A DNA stretch of 64,000 bases, taken from Tistrella mobilis KA081020-065 (GTDB lineage Bacteria > Pseudomonadota > Alphaproteobacteria > Tistrellales > Tistrellaceae). The position numbers were made by a program, and so were the translations under genes. Each line of letters opens with the position of its first letter. The stretch's first letter is position 1. This document shows positions 9,886 through 52,145 of this stretch, one piece after another. The notes beneath the pieces are model-generated. The model saw only the letters and a list, made by a program, of their open reading frames with translations. It was not told where the DNA came from and made no database searches. The DNA lies in the NCBI RefSeq assembly GCF_000264455.2, contig NC_017956.1, positions 3,144,001 through 3,208,000 of the forward strand. Reading direction: 5' to 3'.

Positions 9886-11484
9886 ATGCGGACATTGTGG
9901 AAGCGGGCGGCGCTTGGCGCCGCCGCAACGGCCCTGCTCACCCTCAGCCTGCCGGCGGGGGGTTCGGCCGAAGAGGCACGCAATGGCGGCGTGCTGCGCC
10001 TGATCGCGCACCCCGAGCCACCGACCCTGATGCTGGGCCTGAACCAGCAGGGCCCCACCCAGTTCGTGGCCGGCAAGATCTATGAAGGCCTGCTGACCTA
10101 TGGCCCCGATCTGCAGCCGCGGCCGCATCTGGCCGAAAGCTGGGAGATTTCCGAAGACGGGCTGGTCTACACCTTCCATCTGCGCAAGGACGTGCGCTGG
10201 CATGACGGCCAGCCCTTCACCGCGAAGGATGTGGTGTTCTCGGCGACCGACTTCCTGGCCAAGGTCCACCCGCGTGCCCGCGGCCATTTCGGCCGGGCGG
10301 AGAAGATCGAGGCGCTGGACGATCACACCGTCCGCATGACCCTGAAGGCGCCCTTCGCGCCCTTCATCATGGGCTTCGAGACCTCGTCGGCGCCGATGAT
10401 CCCGGCACATATCTATGAAGGCACCGACTACCAGACCAATCCGGCCAACCAGACCCCGATCGGCACCGGCCCGTTCAAGCTGGCCGAATGGAAGCGCGGC
10501 GCCTTCATCCGGCTGGAACGCAATGCGGATTACTGGCAGGCCGGCAAGCCCGATCTCGACGGGCTGAACTTCGTGATCGTGCCCGATGCGGCCAGCCGCG
10601 CGCTCGCCTTCGAAACCGGCGAGGTCGATGTGCTGCGCGGCGGCGATGTCGAGTATTTCGACGTCCAGCGGCTTGCGGCGTCCGACGGCGTCACCGAGAC
10701 CCGCGCCGGCTATGAGATGCTGTCGCCGACGATGTGGGTGCAGTTCAACCTGCGCAGCGCGCCGATGGACGACGCCCGCTTCCGCCGCGCGGTGATGCAT
10801 GCGATCGACCGCCAGTTCATCGTCGACAATCTCTGGTTCGGCTTCGCGAAGCCCTCGGCCGGCCCGATCGCCTCGACCACGCCGTTCTACGATGAAAAGG
10901 CGCTGGTCACCTATGATTACGACCTGAAGAAGGCCGAAGCCCTGCTCGACGAGATGGGGCTGAAGAAGGACGCGAACGGCGTGCGGACCACCGTCCGCTT
11001 CCTGCCGCTGCCCTATGGCGAGACCTATATCCGCCTCGGCGAATACATCCGCCAGCAGCTGGAGCAGATCGGCATCAGGACCCAGACGGTCGCGACCGAT
11101 CATGCCGGCTGGGCCAAGCGGCTCGGCGACTGGGATTACGATCTCAGCCTCAACCTGCTCTACCAGTATGGCGACCCGTCGCTAGGCGTGGAGCGGGCCT
11201 ATGTCTCGACCAATCTGGTCAAGGGCTCGCCCTCGGCCAATGTGTCGGGGCTGAACGATCCCGAGGTCGACCGGCTGTTCCGCGAGGCGGCGGTCGCGAC
11301 CGATCGCGAGACCCGCGCGGCGCTCTTCTCGGATCTTCAGCAGCGGATCTCGGACCAGGCCTATTTCGGCTATCTGATCGAGGTGCAGTTCCCGACGCTC
11401 TATCGCTCGGGCATCGAGAACCTGGTGACCGGGGCCACCGGGCTGAATGGCGAGATGGAAGACGTGCGCCTGCCGAAGCGCTGA
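9886..11484 (+). CDS. ABC transporter substrate-binding protein, family 5 (DppA-like)
   Basis: A 532-residue exported protein of the dipeptide/oligopeptide/nickel binding family. The leader MRTLWKRAALGAAATALL ends near GGSAEE. The family 5 signature AESWEISEDGLVYTFHLRKD is around residue 90, followed by the usual VRWHDGQPFTAKDVVFS. GGAGG lies 10 bases before ATG 9886, which decides the start over an ATG at 9835. It opens an operon of two permeases, a fused ATPase and three catabolic enzyme subunits, so the ligand is probably an organic acid or conjugate rather than a peptide. Confidence 0.88.
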   Translation: MRTLWKRAALGAAATALLTLSLPAGGSAEEARNGGVLRLIAHPEPPTLMLGLNQQGPTQFVAGKIYEGLLTYGPDLQPRPHLAESWEISEDGLVYTFHLRKDVRWHDGQPFTAKDVVFSATDFLAKVHPRARGHFGRAEKIEALDDHTVRMTLKAPFAPFIMGFETSSAPMIPAHIYEGTDYQTNPANQTPIGTGPFKLAEWKRGAFIRLERNADYWQAGKPDLDGLNFVIVPDAASRALAFETGEVDVLRGGDVEYFDVQRLAASDGVTETRAGYEMLSPTMWVQFNLRSAPMDDARFRRAVMHAIDRQFIVDNLWFGFAKPSAGPIASTTPFYDEKALVTYDYDLKKAEALLDEMGLKKDANGVRTTVRFLPLPYGETYIRLGEYIRQQLEQIGIRTQTVATDHAGWAKRLGDWDYDLSLNLLYQYGDPSLGVERAYVSTNLVKGSPSANVSGLNDPEVDRLFREAAVATDRETRAALFSDLQQRISDQAYFGYLIEVQFPTLYRSGIENLVTGATGLNGEMEDVRLPKR

Positions 11485-19342: not shown

Positions 19343-19544
19343 GCGCAAGAAGCTCCCGGTTATTCGCCGCCCATCTGGTGGCGATTTCATAGCTTCGCCC
19401 GTCAATCCGCCCCGCTATCACCGAAAAATCGGCAAGCTTGATCAGTGCCTCATAATCCGGTGTCAGAAGGTGAAAATGGGGCGGATTGTGATCATCAGCG
19501 AACATCTGGACCTTGAGATTCCCGAATCGCACGATAGTAGGCAT
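19314..19544 (-). CDS. DUF4160 domain protein
   Basis: A 76-residue protein with the DUF4160 hallmarks MPTIVRFGNLKVQMFADDHNPPHFH and a C-terminal RWAANNRELLAHEWERL. It is full length for the family. It is the first gene of a two-gene leftward operon with the DUF2442-HTH protein, and is preceded by a near-perfect palindrome at 19562-19592. Biochemical role unknown; pairing with DUF2442 is a known recurring context. Confidence 0.82.
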   Translation of the reverse strand: MPTIVRFGNLKVQMFADDHNPPHFHLLTPDYEALIKLADFSVIAGRIDGRSYEIATRWAANNRELLAHEWERLNQR

Positions 19545-19561
19545 TCATGGAATCTTCAGTC

Positions 19562-19592
19562 TTGAAATAGTGCACCCTGTGCATTATTTCAA
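19562..19592. promoter_or_regulatory. Near-perfect 14-bp-arm operator before the DUF4160/DUF2442 pair
   Basis: TTGAAATAGTGCAC and GTGCATTATTTCAA face each other around CCT, with 13 of 14 positions paired. It ends 17 bases upstream of the DUF4160 start, so it covers the expected transcription start on the minus strand. The downstream 19593-19806 stretch is A+T-rich and geneless. Autoregulation by the DUF2442-HTH protein is the simplest reading; this is inference. Confidence 0.6.
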
Positions 19593-19806
19593 TGCCCAGC
19601 GGACCAGTGGCATATCCGGACGCTACAGGCCCCTCGCGTCGAGCCATTCCCATACCGAATGGTGAGCGATCAACTTTTAATTAAGTATCTCAAAAAATCA
19701 CGCAATACATAAATAGAACTCGAACACATACGCGCGAATAATGATGCCATAAGTTTTATTTTCCCATGGGCCTACAACTTAACTTGCAAGCCCAAAAGAG
19801 GCGACT

Positions 19807-20238
19807 TCAGATCCGCACAATCACCTGAGACGTCTCGACGATACGCTGCAGGGTGTCCTGATCCAGGCCGCGGAACAGGCGGGCGTAATTGCTCAGGATC
19901 GAAGTTACCATATCGGCGCGCTGGTCGGGGCTGGCCGCAATGCCGCGATTGGCCAGCGTGCGTTCCACCGCCAGGATGACCATCCGCACCTCGGCCGGCG
20001 ATACCAGGTCTGCGGCCCGTGCGTCGTCGGCCGTTTCCGATCCGGCCAGCAGCTGCCAGGCCTCGCACCCCACCGCGGTCGCGATCCGCCGGAGCGTCGC
20101 CTCGGTCAGGCCGGTGCGGCCGGTCTCAAGGCGATGCACGGCCTGCCGCGTCTGGCCGATCGCATTGGCCAGGGCCTCCTGCGTCAGCCCGGCGCGGTCT
20201 CTCATCTCGCGGATGCGGTTCGGCGGAATGCTCGTCAT
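19807..20238 (-). CDS. XRE family helix-turn-helix protein
   Basis: A 143-residue protein. The N-terminal Cro/C1 HTH occupies residues 8-62 (IREMRDRAGLTQEALANAIG, then QTRQAVHRLETGRTGLTEATLRRIATAVG). The remaining 75 residues are helical and include a MVTSILSNYARLFRGLDQDT segment with no family I recognise. No clear ribosome site precedes the ATG. A 10-bp palindrome CTTCCGGAAG (20292-20301) lies in its A+T-rich upstream region and could be its own operator. It is separated from the DUF4160 pair by a 214-base geneless gap. Confidence 0.8.
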   Translation of the reverse strand: MTSIPPNRIREMRDRAGLTQEALANAIGQTRQAVHRLETGRTGLTEATLRRIATAVGCEAWQLLAGSETADDARAADLVSPAEVRMVILAVERTLANRGIAASPDQRADMVTSILSNYARLFRGLDQDTLQRIVETSQVIVRI

Positions 20239-44895: not shown

Positions 44896-44987
44896 TCGCC
44901 CCAGAAAAGCCCCTCGCCTGACGGGACTGCATCATGAAGAGTGGACGGGCCGGCCCTGACCGGTGCCCCCGCCCCCTCTCTTCCCGG

Positions 44988-45890
44988 ATGCCGCCGATGA
45001 TGCTTCGTGCCCTTGCCGTTGCCCTTCTGCTAGCCCTGCCCCTTGCCGCCTGTAATGAAGACGGCAGCAGCACCGGCAGCGATGACAGCGCCCAGACCGG
45101 CATGGGCCGCATGGTCGCCACGGCACCGATGTCGACCGAGATCCAGTCGGCAGGCGCCGCGCCGGAGCCGATGGCGGTTGGCCAGATGGCGGCCCCCCCC
45201 ATGGCGGAGGCTCTTCAGCCGGACGCCGCCGGCTTCCTGGCCTATACCCATGACCGCAACCTGATAACCGAGGCCCCGGACAGCCGCGTCGCCGCGCTGG
45301 AAAAGCTCTGCCGCGAGATGGCAGGCTGCAGCGTGCTGACGGTGCGTGTCGACGGCAGCAGATCCGGCTATTTCGAGGCCCGTCTGCCCAAGCCGGGCGT
45401 CGCCCGGCTGGACGACTATCTCTCGAGCATTGCCGAAAACGGCGAGATCGACCGCCAGACCAGCGCCGAAGACCTGTCGGATCAGATGGTCGACGTGAAG
45501 CAGCGCATCGCCCTGCTGACCACCCATCGCGACCGGCTGCAGGCACTCTATCAGCGCAGTGATGCCCGGCTGGAAGACCTGATCACCATCAGCCGCGAAC
45601 TGGCCGACACCCAGACCAGGCTCGAGCGCGCCGAGGGGGAGTTCGGCCGCCTGGAGAGCCGGATCGATCGCGACATCTATCGCGCCCAACTGCGGGCACC
45701 GGTGACGGAACCGGGCCTCCTCGCCCCCTTCGGCAATCTGGGCGAAGACCTGCTCTACTCGCTGCTCTACACGCTTCGCGATGCGCTGGATGTGCTGGTC
45801 TGGATCATCGGCATGCTGCCTGCCCTGATCCCGCTGGTCCTGCTGCTGACCCTGGCCGTGCGCGCCATCCGCCGCCGCCGGAAGGGTTGA
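44988..45890 (+). CDS. DUF4349-type lipoprotein with coiled coil and C-terminal span
   Basis: About 300 residues. A lipobox LPLAACNED follows a short signal segment; a Ser/Asp/Ala-rich linker leads to a globular part (LTVRVDGSRSGYFEARLPKPGVARLDDYLSSI), a coiled coil (QRIALLTTHRDRLQALYQRS and ISRELADTQTRLERAEGEFGRLESRI) and a membrane span near the C-terminus (LVWIIGMLPALIPLVLLLTLAV) ending in Arg/Lys. This order is that of DUF4349 proteins, of unknown function. The start may be ATG 44988, 44997 or 45000; the frame is open from 44934. Lipid and span would anchor both ends. Confidence 0.75.
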   Translation: MPPMMLRALAVALLLALPLAACNEDGSSTGSDDSAQTGMGRMVATAPMSTEIQSAGAAPEPMAVGQMAAPPMAEALQPDAAGFLAYTHDRNLITEAPDSRVAALEKLCREMAGCSVLTVRVDGSRSGYFEARLPKPGVARLDDYLSSIAENGEIDRQTSAEDLSDQMVDVKQRIALLTTHRDRLQALYQRSDARLEDLITISRELADTQTRLERAEGEFGRLESRIDRDIYRAQLRAPVTEPGLLAPFGNLGEDLLYSLLYTLRDALDVLVWIIGMLPALIPLVLLLTLAVRAIRRRRKG

Positions 45891-45934
45891 CACCGCCCGA
45901 GGGGGTGACACCGCCGGAAGGGGCCGGGACCGGG

Positions 45935-47152
45935 TCAGGCGCCGGCCCGGCCCGCCCGGCAGATCGCAGCGCAAAGATCCTCGACCAGATCTTCGGCATC
46001 CTCCAGCCCTGCATAAAGCCGGAGGCCGGCTCCCTCGGCCGGTGGCCGCGATACCGTCCGCCCCTCGCCGGCGGTGAAGGGCGAGACCAGCGAGACCGCG
46101 CCGCCCCAGCCGTAACCCGGCCGGAACAGGGTCAGCCCCCGGCCGATGGCCGCGGCGTCGGCCGGGCCGCCCCCGTCGACCACCAGCGAGAACAGCGTCC
46201 CGGCACCGGTGAAGTCGCGGGCCCAGACATCATGGCCGGGATGGTCGGGCATGGCTGGATGCAGCAGGCAGAGACCGCGCACGTTCAGCGCCGCCACCGC
46301 CGCCAGCAGGCGGCGGGTGGTGCGGTCCTGGGCAGCCAGGCGCACGGCCAGCGTCTGCATGGCCACCGCCGCCTTCTGGGTGGCATCGGCTGAGACGGCC
46401 ATGCCCTGCAGGGCTGTCTCTTCCAGCACGTCCTCGTAGAGCGCCCGATCCCCGGTCGAGATCGCGCCGAGCGACACGCCGGCCACCCCGGCATGCAGCT
46501 TGGCCAGAGACTGCAGCACCAGATCGGCACCGTGATCGGCCGGCCGGTAATGCAGCCCGGCGCTCCAGGTGTCGTCGACCAGCAGGCGGGCGCCGGCCGC
46601 ATGGGTGGCCTCGGCCACAGCCGCCAGGTCCTCGACCTCGAAGGTGAAGGCCCCCGGCGTTTCGACGCAGACCAGCCGGGTGTCGGGGCGGAGCACATCG
46701 CGGATACCGGCGCCGATCCCCGGCGGGAAGTAGTCGATGCCGATGCCCGCCGCAGCCGCCCGCCGGTCCAGATGCCAGCGCAGCGAATAGGTGACGGCAT
46801 CCGTGACCGCCACCCGCTCCCCCGGTTTCACCGACGCCCAGAGCGCCGCGATGAAGGCCGAAAGCCCGGCCGGCGCGATCACCGCATGGGCCAGACCATT
46901 GGCCGCCGCCACCATCCGCGCCAGCGCCCCTGACGAGGGCGTGCCGACCGCGCCGTAATAGAAGCCGGCGAAGGGATCATGGCCCTGGCGCGCCAGGCTC
47001 TCCCGGTCGACCGGCGCCATGGCATCCAGGTCGCGGAACAGCACCGTGGTCGCCTCGGTCACCGGCGGCACCGGCGTTTCCACGGGTCCCAGCGGAAAGC
47101 GCGCGCCCTGCGCCAGCGTCGTCGCCGGGCGGGTCGGTCGCTGCCCGCTCAC
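45935..47152 (-). CDS. MetC-like PLP-dependent Cys/Met metabolism enzyme
   Basis: A 405-residue fold-type I enzyme of the cystathionine lyase/synthase family. LLVDDTWSAG holds the PLP Asp (residue 193) and LQSLAKLHAG the Schiff-base Lys (218); the 25-residue spacing equals that of E. coli MetC (185 and 210). YYGAVGTPSSGALARMVAAANG matches the phosphate-binding YxRxGTPT region of the partner subunit, but the Arg is replaced by Gly-Ala, so it is divergent. Stop of the radical SAM gene overlaps its start by 4 bases (47149-47152). It may form or split a C-S bond in the radical SAM product or substrate. No Met pathway genes are adjacent. Confidence 0.75.
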   Translation of the reverse strand: MSGQRPTRPATTLAQGARFPLGPVETPVPPVTEATTVLFRDLDAMAPVDRESLARQGHDPFAGFYYGAVGTPSSGALARMVAAANGLAHAVIAPAGLSAFIAALWASVKPGERVAVTDAVTYSLRWHLDRRAAAAGIGIDYFPPGIGAGIRDVLRPDTRLVCVETPGAFTFEVEDLAAVAEATHAAGARLLVDDTWSAGLHYRPADHGADLVLQSLAKLHAGVAGVSLGAISTGDRALYEDVLEETALQGMAVSADATQKAAVAMQTLAVRLAAQDRTTRRLLAAVAALNVRGLCLLHPAMPDHPGHDVWARDFTGAGTLFSLVVDGGGPADAAAIGRGLTLFRPGYGWGGAVSLVSPFTAGEGRTVSRPPAEGAGLRLYAGLEDAEDLVEDLCAAICRAGRAGA

Positions 47153-48750
47153 GAGGCCAGCCTGCCGCCGAGGGGCCGGCCGCGCACGGCATCGGCAGCG
47201 GCGACGACCTCCGCCACCTCGGCCAGACGCGGCGCCCCCACCTGCGGCAGCGGATAGCGCAGCGAGGCCTCGCCGAAATTGTGGAACAGGTCCAGATAGG
47301 GGCCTTCAGGCGTCCCCCAGTCGACATAGTCGTAGCCGGCCCCGCCATCCTCGCCACACAGCGGATGCTGGACCGCCCAGTTCAGGCTGATCGGGTCGGG
47401 CGCGCCATGGCTCAGGCGGAAACGGTCGAGGGTGTCGAGCAGGGCCAGGCGGCTTTCATGGCGCTCGCCCAGGCCGAACAGCACGGCACAGCCGCAATCG
47501 ATGCCGGCCTCTCCCAGCACGTCGAAGGCGCGGTGCATGCGATCGGTCCACGAGGCCCGCTTGCGGCCGACATCCTTGCTCATGCCCCCGATCTCCTCTG
47601 GCGACAGGGTCTCGACCCCGATGAACACATAGGATAGGCCGGCACGGGCCAGGCGCGCCACCTCGGCGGGCCGGGTCAGGATCTGGTCGATGGTCAGTTG
47701 CCCGCCGAAGCGGATGTCGAGCGGCTGGCGGTCCATCAGGTCGCAGAACCGGTCGATCAGCCGGGTGGCACCGCCCAGCAGCACCGAATCCTCGCAGAAT
47801 GCGCTGGCCCGGCGGCCCGGCCAGTCCTCGGCAATCGTCCGGCAGGCAGCGGCGAGCTGGCCGTGCAGCCGGTCGGCGCTGTTGGCAAGGTCGCGCACCC
47901 CGCCGGTCGCCGACACCCGCTCCGAGCAGAAATTGCAGTCGTAGACGCAGCCGCGGCCGATATCGCTGAAGACATGTGCGGTCATGCGCCCGCCGAACAC
48001 GCCGAAACTGGCCGAGACCCCGAAGGTCCGGGCCGGGCTGGGCAGGGCCATCTGGTTCATCGCCACCCCCCGCGAGACCAGATAGCCGGGGCGGCCGCGA
48101 TCATCCAGGCCGAGGATCCAGTCGCCCGGGGTTGCCGGGTCGATCTCGTGGAACAGCGCCGCCGGATGCAGGCTCCGGCGGACCGCCGCCTCCACCGCCC
48201 GCCCCAGAGCGGCGATCAGATATTCGCCATCGCCCATCGCCACGGCATCGAATACCGCCGGCAGCCGGCCGGCATGGATCAGCTCCAGCGGTGCGCCGGC
48301 ATGCCGCCCGAGCGTGGCCGCCCGCCGGTCGCTGCGGTCGGGCAGCCAGACCGTCTCGCTGGCATGGCGCCCGCCGAGGACGATCGCCACCCGATCCCCC
48401 AGAATCTCCCGGGCCTCCCGCGCGCAGGCCACGGCGCCCGGCAGACAGAGCGACATGGCGCCGATCAGCAGCAGGTTCGGGCGCTGCCGCTCGATCAATG
48501 CCCGGAAGGCGGGCATGTCGTCCATGGAATACATCAGCAGGGTCGAGGCCCGGGCGGCAGCACGGGCCGCGCGGGGATCGGCCGCCGCCCAGTTGGAAGC
48601 GCCCCAGGCGCCACGGCCCGCCGCTGCTTCGGCCGCGGCGACCCGGCAGGCATTGTAGAGGCTCGCCGCATCGCGGCTATTGAGCGCACGATCATCCTTC
48701 GCACCCGCCACCCAATCGGGAGCGGAGACGGCAACAGCCCTCAGCGTCAT
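47149..48750 (-). CDS. Radical SAM enzyme with cobalamin-binding-type N-terminus
   Basis: A 533-residue protein. The first 190 residues look like a B12-binding fold: RPNLLLIGAMSLCLPGAVACA, IVLGGRHASETVW, then GDGEYLIAALG (the GEGE-like motif). The radical SAM core has C268-V-Y-D-C272-N-F-C275, then FGGQLTIDQI and YVFIGVETLSPEEI strands. DxHxxG, used for B12 lower-axial replacement, is absent, so cobalamin use is not certain. Start at 48750 has GGGAA 8 bases upstream. Its coupling to a MetC-like enzyme is the reason for interest; substrate unknown. Such enzymes typically methylate or rearrange inert carbons. Confidence 0.72.
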   Translation of the reverse strand: MTLRAVAVSAPDWVAGAKDDRALNSRDAASLYNACRVAAAEAAAGRGAWGASNWAAADPRAARAAARASTLLMYSMDDMPAFRALIERQRPNLLLIGAMSLCLPGAVACAREAREILGDRVAIVLGGRHASETVWLPDRSDRRAATLGRHAGAPLELIHAGRLPAVFDAVAMGDGEYLIAALGRAVEAAVRRSLHPAALFHEIDPATPGDWILGLDDRGRPGYLVSRGVAMNQMALPSPARTFGVSASFGVFGGRMTAHVFSDIGRGCVYDCNFCSERVSATGGVRDLANSADRLHGQLAAACRTIAEDWPGRRASAFCEDSVLLGGATRLIDRFCDLMDRQPLDIRFGGQLTIDQILTRPAEVARLARAGLSYVFIGVETLSPEEIGGMSKDVGRKRASWTDRMHRAFDVLGEAGIDCGCAVLFGLGERHESRLALLDTLDRFRLSHGAPDPISLNWAVQHPLCGEDGGAGYDYVDWGTPEGPYLDLFHNFGEASLRYPLPQVGAPRLAEVAEVVAAADAVRGRPLGGRLAS

Positions 48751-49032
48751 GGTCGATTCCCGGTTCGATGAATGATGGCGCACCCCCTGTACCGGCTCCG
48801 GGCGCGGCCACGGATTTTTCCGTATCCCGCGACCCGTACCCGACAGCCCCATGGCAGGGGAAAGCCATGAAGCCCTTCAGGTAGAACCAGTCAAGAGACA
48901 TGCAACCCAAGGAGATTATGCCTGAAAGACACACGCTCTGGTCAAGGTGTTTGCCATTACAAAACGCGAAGGTTGCGATCTTGTGCGGACTTTTCTTAAT
49001 CCAATATATCAACCAATAATTGATGATGTGCC
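48751..49032. other. A+T-rich intergenic region upstream of the radical SAM gene
   Basis: The 282-base gap holds no gene I can support. The part nearest 48900-49025 is much more A+T-rich than its surroundings and should carry the promoter of the radical SAM/PLP pair on the minus strand. A 106-codon open frame (48692-49012) crosses the radical SAM start and has no ribosome site. I see no cobalamin box or SAM riboswitch core. Confidence 0.4.
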
Positions 49033-50220
49033 TTAAGGAGCTTTCGCCCGGTGCGCTTCGGGATCAAGAGGCGGCAGGGCGATCCAGGCGATGATGGTGG
49101 ACTGAAAGATCTGGTTGAAATTGTCGTCGCTGACGAGGATCAGCGTCTTGCGTCCGTCGCGCAGGTCGGGACCGAAGGCCATGCCCTCCCAGTTATCTGC
49201 CGGCAGGCCGGCCCCGATCAGATCGGAAACAAGCCATTTTTGTGCGGTCACCACATCGGCATCCAGCGGAGCTTCCCGCGCCAACAGGTCTTCCGCCTCC
49301 GCCGGATCTGCGAGATACAGACGCACGCGCAACCGATAGCCGAACCAGAATCCGCGTTCCAGAACCAGATATCGTCCGTCGCCCAGCATCAGAATGGAGA
49401 CGGCACCATTGATCTCGGTTCCACCGCTCATTCCCGGCTGCTGCGGGTCCGGCTGCAGCTCAAGGCGATAGCCATGTTCAGCAACCTCGCGACCGGTGCG
49501 GCGATCATATGTGGCGACCCTCAGGATCGGCCGATGAACGGCACGGCCCGGATACTGGTCCTGTGCAAGTGCAAACTCACTCAGAAAGGTGATCTGCCGC
49601 CCGTCGGGCGACAGGTCCAGCCCTTCGATGCCCTTGTTCGGCCGGATGCCACGCCGCTGAGGCTTGCCCGCATCCGGCAAAAAATGTGCCGGCAAGGGCA
49701 GCTGTCGGACCAGTTCTCCGTCGAGCGTGCTCTCGTACAGACCGGGCGGAACCCGGGATTGCGGCCAGCCTTCCGAAGACCAGATCATGCGTTCCGTGGA
49801 CGGGTCGTAACGCAGGGCCTCTCCGTCCACGACATCGGGTTTCGTGACCTCATCGGCGGCTGTCGCCACCAGCCACTGCCAGTCCCGATCGAAAACCCGG
49901 AACCGATTGCTCTTCAGATCGAAGCGGATGTCCAGGCGCAGCGCGCGCGGCGGGCCCCATTCGCCTCGATCGTCACTGATGGCAAGGAAGCGGCCGAGAC
50001 CGGTATCGTCAACCGGCGCCATGACGGCGATCTCCGACAGGCCACCCACCGGAATCCCAAGCGGCCCATCCTCTCGACGGAGCACGCGCTGATCGAGCAG
50101 CTCCACGCCCCCGGCCGCCGCCGGGTCGGCCGCAGCCGGGATGGCACAACCGGCGAGGAATGGCAGCGCCATCAAAGCGATCGACAGACGGAACAACTGC
50201 CGCAGATGCTCCGCCATCAC
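49033..50220 (-). CDS. Phytase-type esterase-like lipoprotein
   Basis: A 395-residue exported protein of the esterase-like phytase family (a beta-propeller fold, PF13449). A lipobox [11 protein letters not shown] gives an outer- or inner-membrane lipoprotein. Family motifs are [47 protein letters not shown], and [26 protein letters not shown]. Function of the family is poorly known despite its name. It overlaps mutL by 4 bases downstream in the operon. Confidence 0.8.
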
Positions 50221-52145
50221 CGCCGCCCGAACAGCCGCTCTATGGCAGTTCGGTCAAGCGACACCCAGGTCGGCCGGCCATGATTGCACTGGCCGGAATG
50301 TGGCGTGATCTCCATCTCGCGCAGCAGGGCGTTCATCTCAGGGATGGTCAGCCGGCGGCCGGCACGCACGCTGCCATGGCAGGCCATGGTCGCACAGACC
50401 GCCTCCAGCCGGTCCGCCAGCGCCAGGGCCTCGTCATATTCGGCGATCTCGTCGCCGAGGTCGCGGACAAGCCCCTGCGCATCCACGCGCCCCAGCAGGG
50501 CCGGCACGCCACGAACCAGCACCGCCCCGGGCCCGAAGGCCTCGATCTCGAGCCCCAGCCGGCCGAGTTCGGCCGCCCGTCGGAGCAGGCCGTCGGCCAC
50601 CGCTTCGTCCAGCTCCACCACTTCGGGCAGCAGCAGCCCCTGCGAGGGCACGCCGGCCTCGGCCATATGCCGCTTCATCCGCTCATAGACCAGACGTTCA
50701 TGGGCGGCATGCTGGTCGACCACGACCAGGCCGTCGCGGGTCTCGGCCAGGATATAGGTGTCGTGCAGCTGCGCCAGGGCCGCCCCCAAAGGATGGGCGC
50801 GGGTCGCCTCGTCGGCGACATGATCTGCCGGGGCCGCCCCGCGGGCAGCGGGTGGTGCGGGAGGGGCTACGCCCCGATCGGCAAGTTCATGCGGCAGCGC
50901 GCCTTCTCCGGCCGGCGGTGCCCAAAAGGCCGTCGCCCGCGCGGCGGCCTGGGGGTCGGGACGGTCCGGCAGGACGCCGGCCGCCGCGGCCCGGGCCGCC
51001 GACCAGAGCGAGTCCTGTCCCGCCCCGACAGCGCCCGGCATCGGCCGGGGTGCCGCGGCCGGCAGGACCGCCTGATTGACGGTGCCGAGCGGCCCCACCC
51101 CACCCAGGGCCCCGACCCCACCCAGAGCCGTCGCCGCGCGGTGGCCGGCCTCGGCCAGGGCGTGGCGCAGAGCCCCTATGATCAGGCCACGGACAAGCTG
51201 CGGGTCGCGGAACCGCACCTCGGCCTTGGCGGGATGGACGTTCACGTCCACCAGCCGGGCCGGCACGGTCAGGAACAGGGCGACCATCGGATGCCGGTCG
51301 CGGGCCAGGAAATCCTGATACGCGGCCCGCACCACCCCCTGCATCAGCCGGTCGCGCACCGGCCGGCCGTTGACGAACAGATACTGGTGCTGCGCCGTGC
51401 CGCGGTTCAGCGTCGGCAGGCCGGCATGGCCCTCCAGGCGCAGCAGGTCGCGCTCGGCCTCGATCTCCAGCGCATTGGCGGCAAAATCCCGCCCCATGAT
51501 CCGGCCGAGCCGGGCGAGGCGCGCCTCGGCACCGGTTCCCGTCTCGGGCCGGAAGGCGAAGATCCGGCGCTCGCCGTCGGCCAGCGAAAAGCCGATCTCG
51601 GGATAGGCCATGGCCAGGCGGCGGAGCGCATCGGCCACAGCCTGGGTCTCGGTGCGTTCCGCCTTCAGGAATTTGAGCCGGGCCGGCGTGGCATAGAACA
51701 GGTCGCGGACCTCGACCCGGGTGCCTGGCGGGCCGGATGCCGGCTTCACCGGTGCCCTTATGCCGCCCTCGACCACAATTTCAAGCGCCGTATCCGCCCC
51801 GCGCCGACGGCTGGTGATGCGCAGCCGCGCCACCGCGCCGATCGAGGGCAAGGCCTCGCCACGGAAACCCAGCGTGTCGATCTCGACCAGATCGTCATCG
51901 GCGAGCTTCGAGGTTGCATGGCGCTCGATGGCGAGTTCCAGATCATCGGCATCCATGCCGATGCCGTCATCGGTGACGGCGATCAGGCTGCGCCCGCCGG
52001 CCCCCAGCACCACATCGACCTGCCGGGCACCGGCATCGATCGCATTCTCGACCAGTTCCTTCACCGCCGCCGCCGGCCGCTCCACCACCTCGCCGGCGGC
52101 GATGCGGTTGACCAGGGTTTCGGGCAGGCGGCGGATCCGGGACAT
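50217..52145 (-). CDS. mutL: DNA mismatch repair protein MutL
   Basis: A 642-residue MutL. The N-terminal GHKL ATPase has [18 protein letters not shown] and [23 protein letters not shown]. The C-terminal dimerisation domain has [14 protein letters not shown], the DQHA(X)2E(X)4E endonuclease motif, with [12 protein letters not shown] and QCNHGRPTW as the associated zinc site. So it nicks DNA itself, as expected without MutH. The linker (about residues 350-430) is Pro/Ala/Gly-rich. It follows pgi by 14 bases. Confidence 0.95.

What the first reader, a model, noticed from the sequence alone, without database searches (positions are those of the whole stretch)
45935..48750. Coupled radical SAM and MetC-like enzyme: possible undescribed sulfur or amino acid chemistry
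The two genes overlap by 4 bases behind one A+T-rich promoter. The PLP enzyme keeps the MetC Asp-to-Lys spacing of 25 but has lost the phosphate-binding Arg region. The radical SAM protein has CxxxCxxC and a GDGE motif but no DxHxxG. A two-step conversion, C-H activation then C-S lyase or replacement, would fit and is not known to me.
Basis: inference. Interest (0 to 1): 0.7.

Follow-up and report, generated by a model that had tools for sequence, protein, structure and literature searches.

The report
Paired radical-SAM and PLP amino-acid enzymes
Two overlapping genes encode a radical enzyme of a named but untested vitamin-B12-type family and a repurposed cystathionine-lyase relative; the same pair recurs in an apparently undescribed Pseudomonas gene cluster, so together they probably make an unusual amino acid.

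Summary
A radical SAM gene (48750-47149, -) and a Cys/Met-type PLP gene (47152-45935, -) overlap by GTGA behind a 282-bp A+T-rich gap. The radical SAM protein is a strong member of NCBIfam TIGR04434 (991.6 bits, cut-off 550), a hypothetical-equivalog family. The PLP protein belongs to PF01053 but fails the curated cystathionine beta-lyase model (234.2 bits, cut-off 365.9); two other loci of the genome pass it, one narrowly. The pair is present in the three genomes of the genus that I read and in three Pseudomonas genomes. There it sits among D-Ala-D-Ala-ligase-like, cysteine-desulfurase-like and unknown genes. Elsewhere TIGR04434 lies near an S-adenosylmethionine decarboxylase homolog or a methyltransferase-like gene. 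Best reading: the radical enzyme C-methylates (or otherwise modifies) SAM or a methionine-like amino acid, and the PLP enzyme eliminates or cyclises the product into a non-protein amino acid. Substrate, methylation and cobalamin use are inferred. New variant of a known kind.

The parts
47149..48750 (-). B12-binding-type radical SAM protein, 533 aa, family TIGR04434 (rSAM_Pput_1520)
   Evidence: NCBIfam TIGR04434 991.6 bits, cut-off 550; PF04055 34.9 bits, cut-off 29.5; CxxxCxxC at C268, GDGE at G173; model resembles cobalamin-type radical SAM structures and AprD4
45935..47152 (-). PLP enzyme of the Cys/Met metabolism family, 405 aa, divergent MetC-like subfamily with D193, K218, W349 and R378 kept
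   Evidence: PF01053 165.5 bits, cut-off 27; below the cut-off of each of the 25 NCBIfam models shown, of 48 matched; clade with the Pseudomonas partner enzymes, support 1.000
47149..47152 (-). 4-base overlap GTGA: stop of the radical SAM gene and start of the PLP gene
48751..49032 (-). A+T-rich leader/promoter region of the pair (53% GC), with islands conserved in three genomes of the genus
   Evidence: no sigma-70 site; no Rfam family near its gathering score

Best explanation
A two-gene unit for making a non-protein amino acid. Step 1: the TIGR04434 enzyme, a class-B (cobalamin-binding type) radical SAM protein, abstracts hydrogen from an unactivated carbon of a free amino acid and most likely methylates it; the likeliest substrate is the methionine part of SAM or a close relative. 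Step 2: the Cys/Met-family PLP enzyme binds this product as an aldimine through K218, with the substrate carboxylate on R378, and expels the sulfur leaving group, giving a cyclopropane, vinylglycine-type or gamma-substituted amino acid. In Pseudomonas, D-Ala-D-Ala-ligase-like enzymes and a cysteine-desulfurase-like enzyme probably elaborate the product into a small peptide or thio-compound. Shown: gene anatomy, family membership, recurrence of the pair, divergence of the PLP enzyme, retained catalytic residues. Inferred: cobalamin use, methylation, the substrate, the PLP reaction and the product.
For: TIGR04434 membership at 991.6 bits. The structure model's ten best VIA rows are all AprD4, OxsB, CysS, TsrM or TokK, and Foldseek's best hit is TsrM (E 6.7e-9), which methylates free tryptophan (recalled; the entry title names tryptophan as substrate). 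The genome has a CobN gene (1547.2 bits, cut-off 822.05). The PLP partner forms a clade with the Pseudomonas partner enzymes, support 1.000, matching a radical SAM clade with support 0.952. Two other loci in the genome pass TIGR01324 (429.1 and, narrowly, 369.0 bits; cut-off 365.9), so a housekeeping lyase is likely covered elsewhere. Neighbours of TIGR04434 elsewhere fit SAM chemistry: an AdoMet decarboxylase homolog in 10 of 18 loci read (the two that were scored pass the equivalog cut-off) and a related methyltransferase-like gene in 2 of 18 (below Pfam's cut-offs). A published parallel runs from SAM: Orf29 makes methyl-SAM and PLP-dependent Orf30 makes 2-methyl-ACC.
Against: No substrate, product or cobalamin binding is shown. 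AprD4, the best-aligned structure (Z 16.7), is as far as I recall not cobalamin-dependent and is a dehydratase, so the fold alone proves neither cobalamin nor methylation. The model is moderate (mean pLDDT 68.4). By plain identity the PLP protein is no closer to its Pseudomonas counterparts (33-36%) than to the MetC-like paralogs (31-36%); the grouping rests on score (211-222 against 142-207 bits), tree and fixed positions. The decarboxylase-linked and PLP-linked radical SAM proteins are only 39-46% identical and may use different substrates. No MTA-handling gene was recognised among the neighbours scored, but none was searched for specifically.
Confidence: 0.42

Rival explanations
1. The radical SAM enzyme does non-methylating chemistry (dehydration, ring contraction, epimerisation or C-C/C-S bond formation) on an amino acid or nucleotide-linked substrate, and the PLP enzyme processes that product.
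For: The best-aligned structures are AprD4 (diol dehydratase, Z 16.7) and OxsB (Z 13.8), with CysS, TsrM and TokK (methylases) at 12.9-13.6.
Against: The Foldseek top four hits are TsrM, a methylase. Most characterised class-B enzymes methylate (recalled; PMC11659888's abstract start says methylation is the most common reaction of cobalamin radical SAM enzymes). The closest other NCBIfam model is HpnR, a C-methylase, though weakly (24 bits, cut-off 650).
Confidence: 0.25
2. Order reversed or C-S bond formation: the PLP enzyme builds a new sulfur amino acid (beta- or gamma-replacement, with sulfur from the cysteine-desulfurase-like enzyme in Pseudomonas), and the radical SAM enzyme then modifies it.
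For: The Pseudomonas cluster holds a cysteine-desulfurase-like gene (best model DndA 316.9 bits, below its cut-off 480), and the PLP enzyme is from a family that does replacements.
Against: The genes flanking the window pair are a phytase-like and a DUF4349 gene, so no sulfur-supply gene lies next to it; and TIGR04434 occurs elsewhere without this PLP partner, so it does not need a PLP-made substrate in general.
Confidence: 0.17
3. The PLP enzyme does not break or make C-S bonds: it is a racemase, deaminase or decarboxylase on the radical enzyme's product.
For: PF01053-type enzymes include a bifunctional L-alanine/L-glutamate racemase, whose model matches (107.2 bits for the window protein, 148.7 for a Pseudomonas partner, cut-off 629). 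The Tyr-loop and GHSD segments of MetC are replaced.
Against: MetC-type models score far higher (276.4 and 234.2 bits), and W349 and R378 of the MetC pocket are kept.
Confidence: 0.11
4. Ordinary: a spare cystathionine beta-lyase that happens to sit behind an unrelated radical SAM gene.
For: PF01053 membership and 31-36% identity to MetC-like paralogs, no lower than to the Pseudomonas partners.
Against: Fails the equivalog cut-off while two other loci of the genome pass, one narrowly. Paired in two unrelated genera, with congruent clades.
Confidence: 0.05

Closest known systems
TIGR04434 (rSAM_Pput_1520), NCBIfam hypothetical equivalog
   Same: The radical SAM protein is a member over the cut-off.
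   Different: The model carries no assigned function; the papers searched hold neither the family name nor the gene Pput_1520 or its neighbours' tags.
Orf29/Orf30 (Swb7/Swb6) of 2-methyl-ACC (norcoronamic acid) biosynthesis
   Same: Adjacent B12-type radical SAM and PLP genes; first C-methylation of an amino acid (SAM), then a PLP step that loses sulfur (PMC7277169; PMC10491745).
   Different: The PLP enzyme there is of the aspartate-aminotransferase superfamily (GnmY type), here Cys/Met type (PF01053). Homology of Orf29 to TIGR04434 was not tested (sequence not on hand). No NRPS gene was seen beside the window pair.
Cystathionine beta-lyase MetC
   Same: Sequence family, Asp-Lys spacing, PLP lysine, W349, R378.
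   Different: 234.2 bits against cut-off 365.9; replaced Arg loop, Tyr loop and GHSD segment; 15 positions fixed in six paired enzymes and absent from 21 other sequences, two of these in an insertion.
TsrM, CysS, TokK, OxsB (cobalamin radical SAM enzymes) and AprD4
   Same: Two-domain fold of the model; CxxxCxxC.
   Different: 12-15% identity in the ten best rows; substrate and cobalamin binding unknown here; AprD4 is as recalled not cobalamin-dependent.

Membership tests
TIGR04434 (rSAM_Pput_1520) | Score over the curated cut-off of 550 bits over the full model | tested here: met
   991.6 bits, model positions 1-515 of 515
Radical SAM superfamily | CxxxCxxC cluster motif in the Radical_SAM domain | tested here: met
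   PF04055 34.9 bits, cut-off 29.5; C268, C272, C275
Class-B (cobalamin-dependent) radical SAM methylase | N-terminal Rossmann-type cobalamin-binding domain before the barrel | tested here: inconclusive
   Predicted N-terminal alpha/beta domain; aligned over most of its length to OxsB, TsrM, CysS and TokK, but best to AprD4; no Pfam B12-binding hit up to E = 1
Class-B (cobalamin-dependent) radical SAM methylase | Cobalamin binding and methyl transfer | not testable with these tools
   Needs reconstituted protein; a CobN gene in the genome suggests that it makes cobalamin
Cys/Met metabolism PLP enzymes (PF01053) | Score over the gathering cut-off | tested here: met
   165.5 bits, cut-off 27
Cystathionine beta-lyase (TIGR01324) | Score over the equivalog cut-off of 365.9 bits | tested here: not met
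   234.2 bits; two other loci of the genome score 429.1 and 369.0
Cystathionine beta-lyase (TIGR01324) | Lyase activity on cystathionine | not testable with these tools
   Needs an assay or metC complementation
Orf29/Orf30 MeACC system | B12-type radical SAM gene directly beside a PLP gene | tested here: met
   (the B12 part rests on the TIGR04434 name)
Orf29/Orf30 MeACC system | PLP enzyme of the aspartate-aminotransferase superfamily (GnmY/Orf30 type) | tested here: not met
   PF01053 165.5 bits; Aminotran_1_2 17.2 bits, below its cut-off 19.7
Orf29/Orf30 MeACC system | Radical SAM enzyme homologous to Orf29/Swb7 | not tested

The most novel reading that the evidence does not exclude
TIGR04434 enzymes are SAM-remodelling radical enzymes that stand at the head of at least three pathways: they make a carbon-modified SAM that is then processed by whichever SAM-using partner lies near them (a Cys/Met-type PLP enzyme here and in Pseudomonas, an AdoMet decarboxylase homolog in Rhizobium and Actinophytocola, a methyltransferase-like protein in another Pseudomonas and a Parcubacterium). 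The window pair then gives a new SAM-derived amino acid by a Cys/Met-family PLP enzyme. In Pseudomonas the amino acid enters a new alanine-like antimetabolite, guarded by a spare D-Ala-D-Ala ligase.
Probability: 0.25. Interest if true: 0.8.

Novelty: new variant of a known kind. Interest (0 to 1): 0.5.

Why it matters
It gives an uncharacterised radical SAM family a recurring partner and hence a testable two-enzyme reaction. It also points to an apparently undescribed Pseudomonas cluster with small-peptide ligase homologs and a possible built-in D-Ala-D-Ala-ligase resistance gene. If the substrate is SAM, it would be a second route to modified-SAM amino acids, built with a PLP enzyme of a different superfamily, and TIGR04434 could be a general source of remodelled SAM.

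Tried and rejected
Considered and dropped. (1) Ordinary MetC: fails the curated model, and two other loci of the genome pass it. (2) The lost Arg as a sign of novelty: other PF01053 paralogs vary at the same two columns. (3) Missing DxHxxG as a sign of novelty: absent from all 15 family members tested and not expected in CysS/TokK-like enzymes. (4) Riboswitch in the A+T-rich leader: four Rfam matches up to E = 10 in 45000-50500, none in the leader and none near a gathering score; a consensus fold on three sequences is not informative (covariation term +1.03). (5) Missing pathway parts elsewhere in the genome: the unknown Pseudomonas cluster protein has no match in G000, G162 or G1056, and the search with the first cluster ligase gives one match in G000, taken as the housekeeping gene. 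(6) Structure of the PLP protein: two-sequence alignment, mean pLDDT 38.3, not used. (7) viral contigs: none of 3 pattern matches encodes a relative. (8) Papers: none holds TIGR04434, rSAM_Pput_1520 or Pput_1518-1523; none holds all the terms tried for the Pseudomonas cluster. Other word combinations gave PMC7277169, PMC10367076 (not read), 106 papers of which I saw a list of 15, and PMC10491745 and PMC8300815 (the latter not read). The library holds open-licence papers only.

Sampling limits. The one genome-contig scan used only two peptide patterns and gave 10 loci, so many relatives were surely missed. Held-genome samples: 3 over the cut-off of 289 in the class (26 more had weak radical SAM matches under it); 2 at E<=1e-50 of 398 in the phylum, one of them just under the cut-off; 4 at E<=1e-30 of 398 in Pseudomonas, 3 over the cut-off and one being the genome searched from; 1 of 369 and 1 of 394, each the genome searched from; relatives 2 of 58, own genome included. 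Of 11 plasmid records matched, 9 Rhizobium and 2 distant Streptomyces (27.7 and 24.6% identity), I read 2, both Rhizobium. Identical sequences were dropped before the PLP tree. An earlier radical SAM tree had picked a wrong ORF for L062 and is superseded.
Full report
What is there. On the minus strand, a radical SAM ORF (48750-47149, 533 aa) is followed by a PLP ORF (47152-45935, 405 aa, GTG start), overlapping by GTGA. The pair lies between a phytase-like gene (49033-50220, PF13449) and a DUF4349 gene (44934-45890, PF14257). I recognised mutL and pgi further upstream and rsmD- and rluB-like genes downstream by eye in the ORF list, without a search. Two other genomes of the genus show the pair in the same neighbourhood. 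A 282-bp gap of 53% GC precedes the pair, in a window of 68% GC. Against the two relatives, dN/dS is 0.03-0.04 for the radical SAM gene and 0.08-0.09 for the PLP gene. The 3,919,492-bp contig within a 6.5-Mb, 5-contig genome fits Tistrella mobilis as I recall it; 'Tistrella' in my scripts rests on that recall.

The radical SAM protein. It scores 991.6 bits against NCBIfam TIGR04434 (cut-off 550), named 'B12-binding domain/radical SAM domain-containing protein' and typed as a hypothetical equivalog. It has no sequence match among solved structures up to E = 1. An AlphaFold2 model from six sequences (mean pLDDT 68.4, pTM 0.73) has an N-terminal alpha/beta domain and a radical SAM barrel. The ten best VIA rows are AprD4 (Z 16.7, rmsd 4.9, 382 aligned), OxsB (13.8, 6.1, 391), CysS (13.6, 5.8, 393), TsrM (13.4, 5.6, 384) and TokK (12.9, 6.1, 389) or further entries of them. 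Foldseek ranks TsrM first (E 6.7e-9). The genome has CobN. A cobalamin enzyme is therefore likely, but AprD4, as recalled not cobalamin-dependent, shows that the fold alone does not settle it.

The PLP protein. PF01053 at 165.5 bits. It falls under the cut-off of each of the 25 NCBIfam models shown, of 48 matched (best: PRK07050 276.4/500; TIGR01324 234.2/365.9). It keeps D193, K218 (PLP lysine), W349 and R378, aligned with MetC D185, K210, W340 and R372 (numbering from the chain alignment; residue roles recalled). It departs in the Arg loop, the Tyr loop (VTYSLRW) and the segment after the lysine (KLHAGVAG instead of the K-Y...GHSD pattern). Fifteen positions are invariant in six paired enzymes and absent in 21 other PF01053 sequences from the genomes searched; two of the fifteen lie in an insertion. 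In a FastTree tree the three genus members and the three Pseudomonas partners form one clade (support 1.000) apart from MetC-like paralogs. Against this: by plain identity the window protein is no closer to the Pseudomonas partners (33-36%) than to MetC-like paralogs (31-36%); only score, tree and fixed positions separate them.

Recurrence of the pair. I read 18 TIGR04434-type loci for neighbours. Six have the paired PLP gene directly behind: the window, two relatives (L044, L045), and Pseudomonas L034, L061 and L062. Ten (nine Rhizobium loci, L032, L033, L035-L040 and L043, and Actinophytocola L041) have an AdoMet decarboxylase homolog within 5 kb downstream instead: directly behind in L035, L036, L037 and L041, further off, with transposase-like ORFs between where I looked (L032, L040), in the other six. 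Two (Pseudomonas L063, Parcubacteria L042) share a methyltransferase-like gene (33% identical to each other; below Pfam's cut-offs). By these three markers the sets do not overlap, although L041 also has a methyltransferase of another type. Rhizobium L038 and L039 look like the same stretch, three Rhizobium contigs are short (3.9-7.0 kb), and the Rhizobium copies are close relatives, so the ten are far from independent. In the radical SAM tree the PLP-linked members group together (support 0.952), next to L042 (0.946) and then L063, with the decarboxylase-linked ones on the other side of a split with support 0.999. Identity between the two PLP-linked genera is 46-49% for the radical SAM protein and 33-36% for the PLP protein. 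Of four Pseudomonas genomes with the family among 398 sampled, three have the PLP partner.

The Pseudomonas cluster. In L034 and L062 the order is: GntR regulator, a D-Ala-D-Ala-ligase-like gene on the other strand, radical SAM, PLP, an unknown protein of about 295 aa, a cysteine-desulfurase-like gene, and a second, shorter D-Ala-D-Ala-ligase-like gene (families scored on L062, the regulator on L034). L061 is a 5.5-kb contig that holds the first part; there the unknown gene's frame is interrupted near the contig end. Each of the three genomes has three ligase matches: the first cluster copy, one distant from the cluster, and a third that in G974 and G655 is the second cluster copy and in G935, on another contig, is presumably the same. 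The unknown protein has no Pfam or NCBIfam match at the limits used and no convincing solved relative (best E 0.052). The first ligase scores over a D-Ala-D-Ala ligase subfamily cut-off (361.1/262); the second stays under the cut-offs of the models shown (220.7/243 at best). A self-resistance role for the first is my inference. One caution: in L034 the radical SAM gene carries an in-frame TGA, so that copy may be dead.

How it most likely works. The neighbours of the family belong to SAM or sulfur-amino-acid chemistry: Cys/Met PLP enzyme, AdoMet decarboxylase homolog (the two scored pass the equivalog cut-off, 93.6 and 92.8 against 75.65, though the IHTW histidine is Asn) and methyltransferase-like protein. 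The simplest common idea is that the radical enzyme works on SAM or a methionine-like amino acid. There is a functional parallel: Orf29 methylates the methionine moiety of SAM and the PLP enzyme Orf30 turns methyl-SAM into 2-methyl-ACC (PMC7277169: first part of the text, discussion section and other passages read; PMC10491745: passages). PLP enzyme Mur24 also works by eliminating MTA from SAM (PMC10491745, passages). I therefore favour C-methylation of SAM or a relative, then PLP-driven loss of the sulfur leaving group, at 0.42. The weak points are that no substrate is shown, that the decarboxylase-linked and PLP-linked enzymes may differ in substrate, and that non-methylating chemistry is not excluded.

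Verdict. The radical SAM half belongs to a named family, the PLP half is a divergent subfamily of a known one, and the two-step logic has a precedent. Hence a new variant of a known kind, interest 0.5.

Noticed in passing
L032, L033, L035-L040, L043 (Rhizobium); L041 11597-13170: A TIGR04434-like gene near an AdoMet decarboxylase homolog with the IHTW histidine changed to Asn, in L041 followed by an alanine-dehydrogenase-like gene. In 6 of 9 Rhizobium loci only a 49-aa stretch of that dehydrogenase is matched and insertion-sequence genes crowd the site where I looked; in L033 and L043 the radical SAM gene matches in two pieces as if frameshifted.
   Followed up: partly
L062 7023-14007; L034 8058-15731: Pseudomonas cluster with two extra D-Ala-D-Ala-ligase-like genes, a cysteine-desulfurase-like gene, an unknown protein of about 295 aa and a GntR regulator around the radical SAM/PLP pair.
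   Followed up: partly
L034 about 11063-11065: In-frame TGA in an otherwise intact radical SAM gene of Pseudomonas sp. S31, while the PLP and downstream genes are open.
   Followed up: partly
window about 48800-48835: A conserved G+C-rich hairpin in the leader of the pair, with two pairs changed on both sides but also some broken pairs among three sequences; possibly an attenuator. Inverted GCAACC/GGTTGC islands lie further upstream.
   Followed up: partly
L042 8314-9090 and 12252-12962: In a Parcubacteria genome the TIGR04434 gene has a methyltransferase-like gene downstream and, across one opposite ORF, a marginal SAM hydroxide adenosyltransferase C-terminal domain (25.8 bits, cut-off 25.5).
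   Followed up: no
window about 19421-19860: The lowest-GC stretch of the window (down to 41% GC in 180-base steps against 68% overall), not examined.
   Followed up: no
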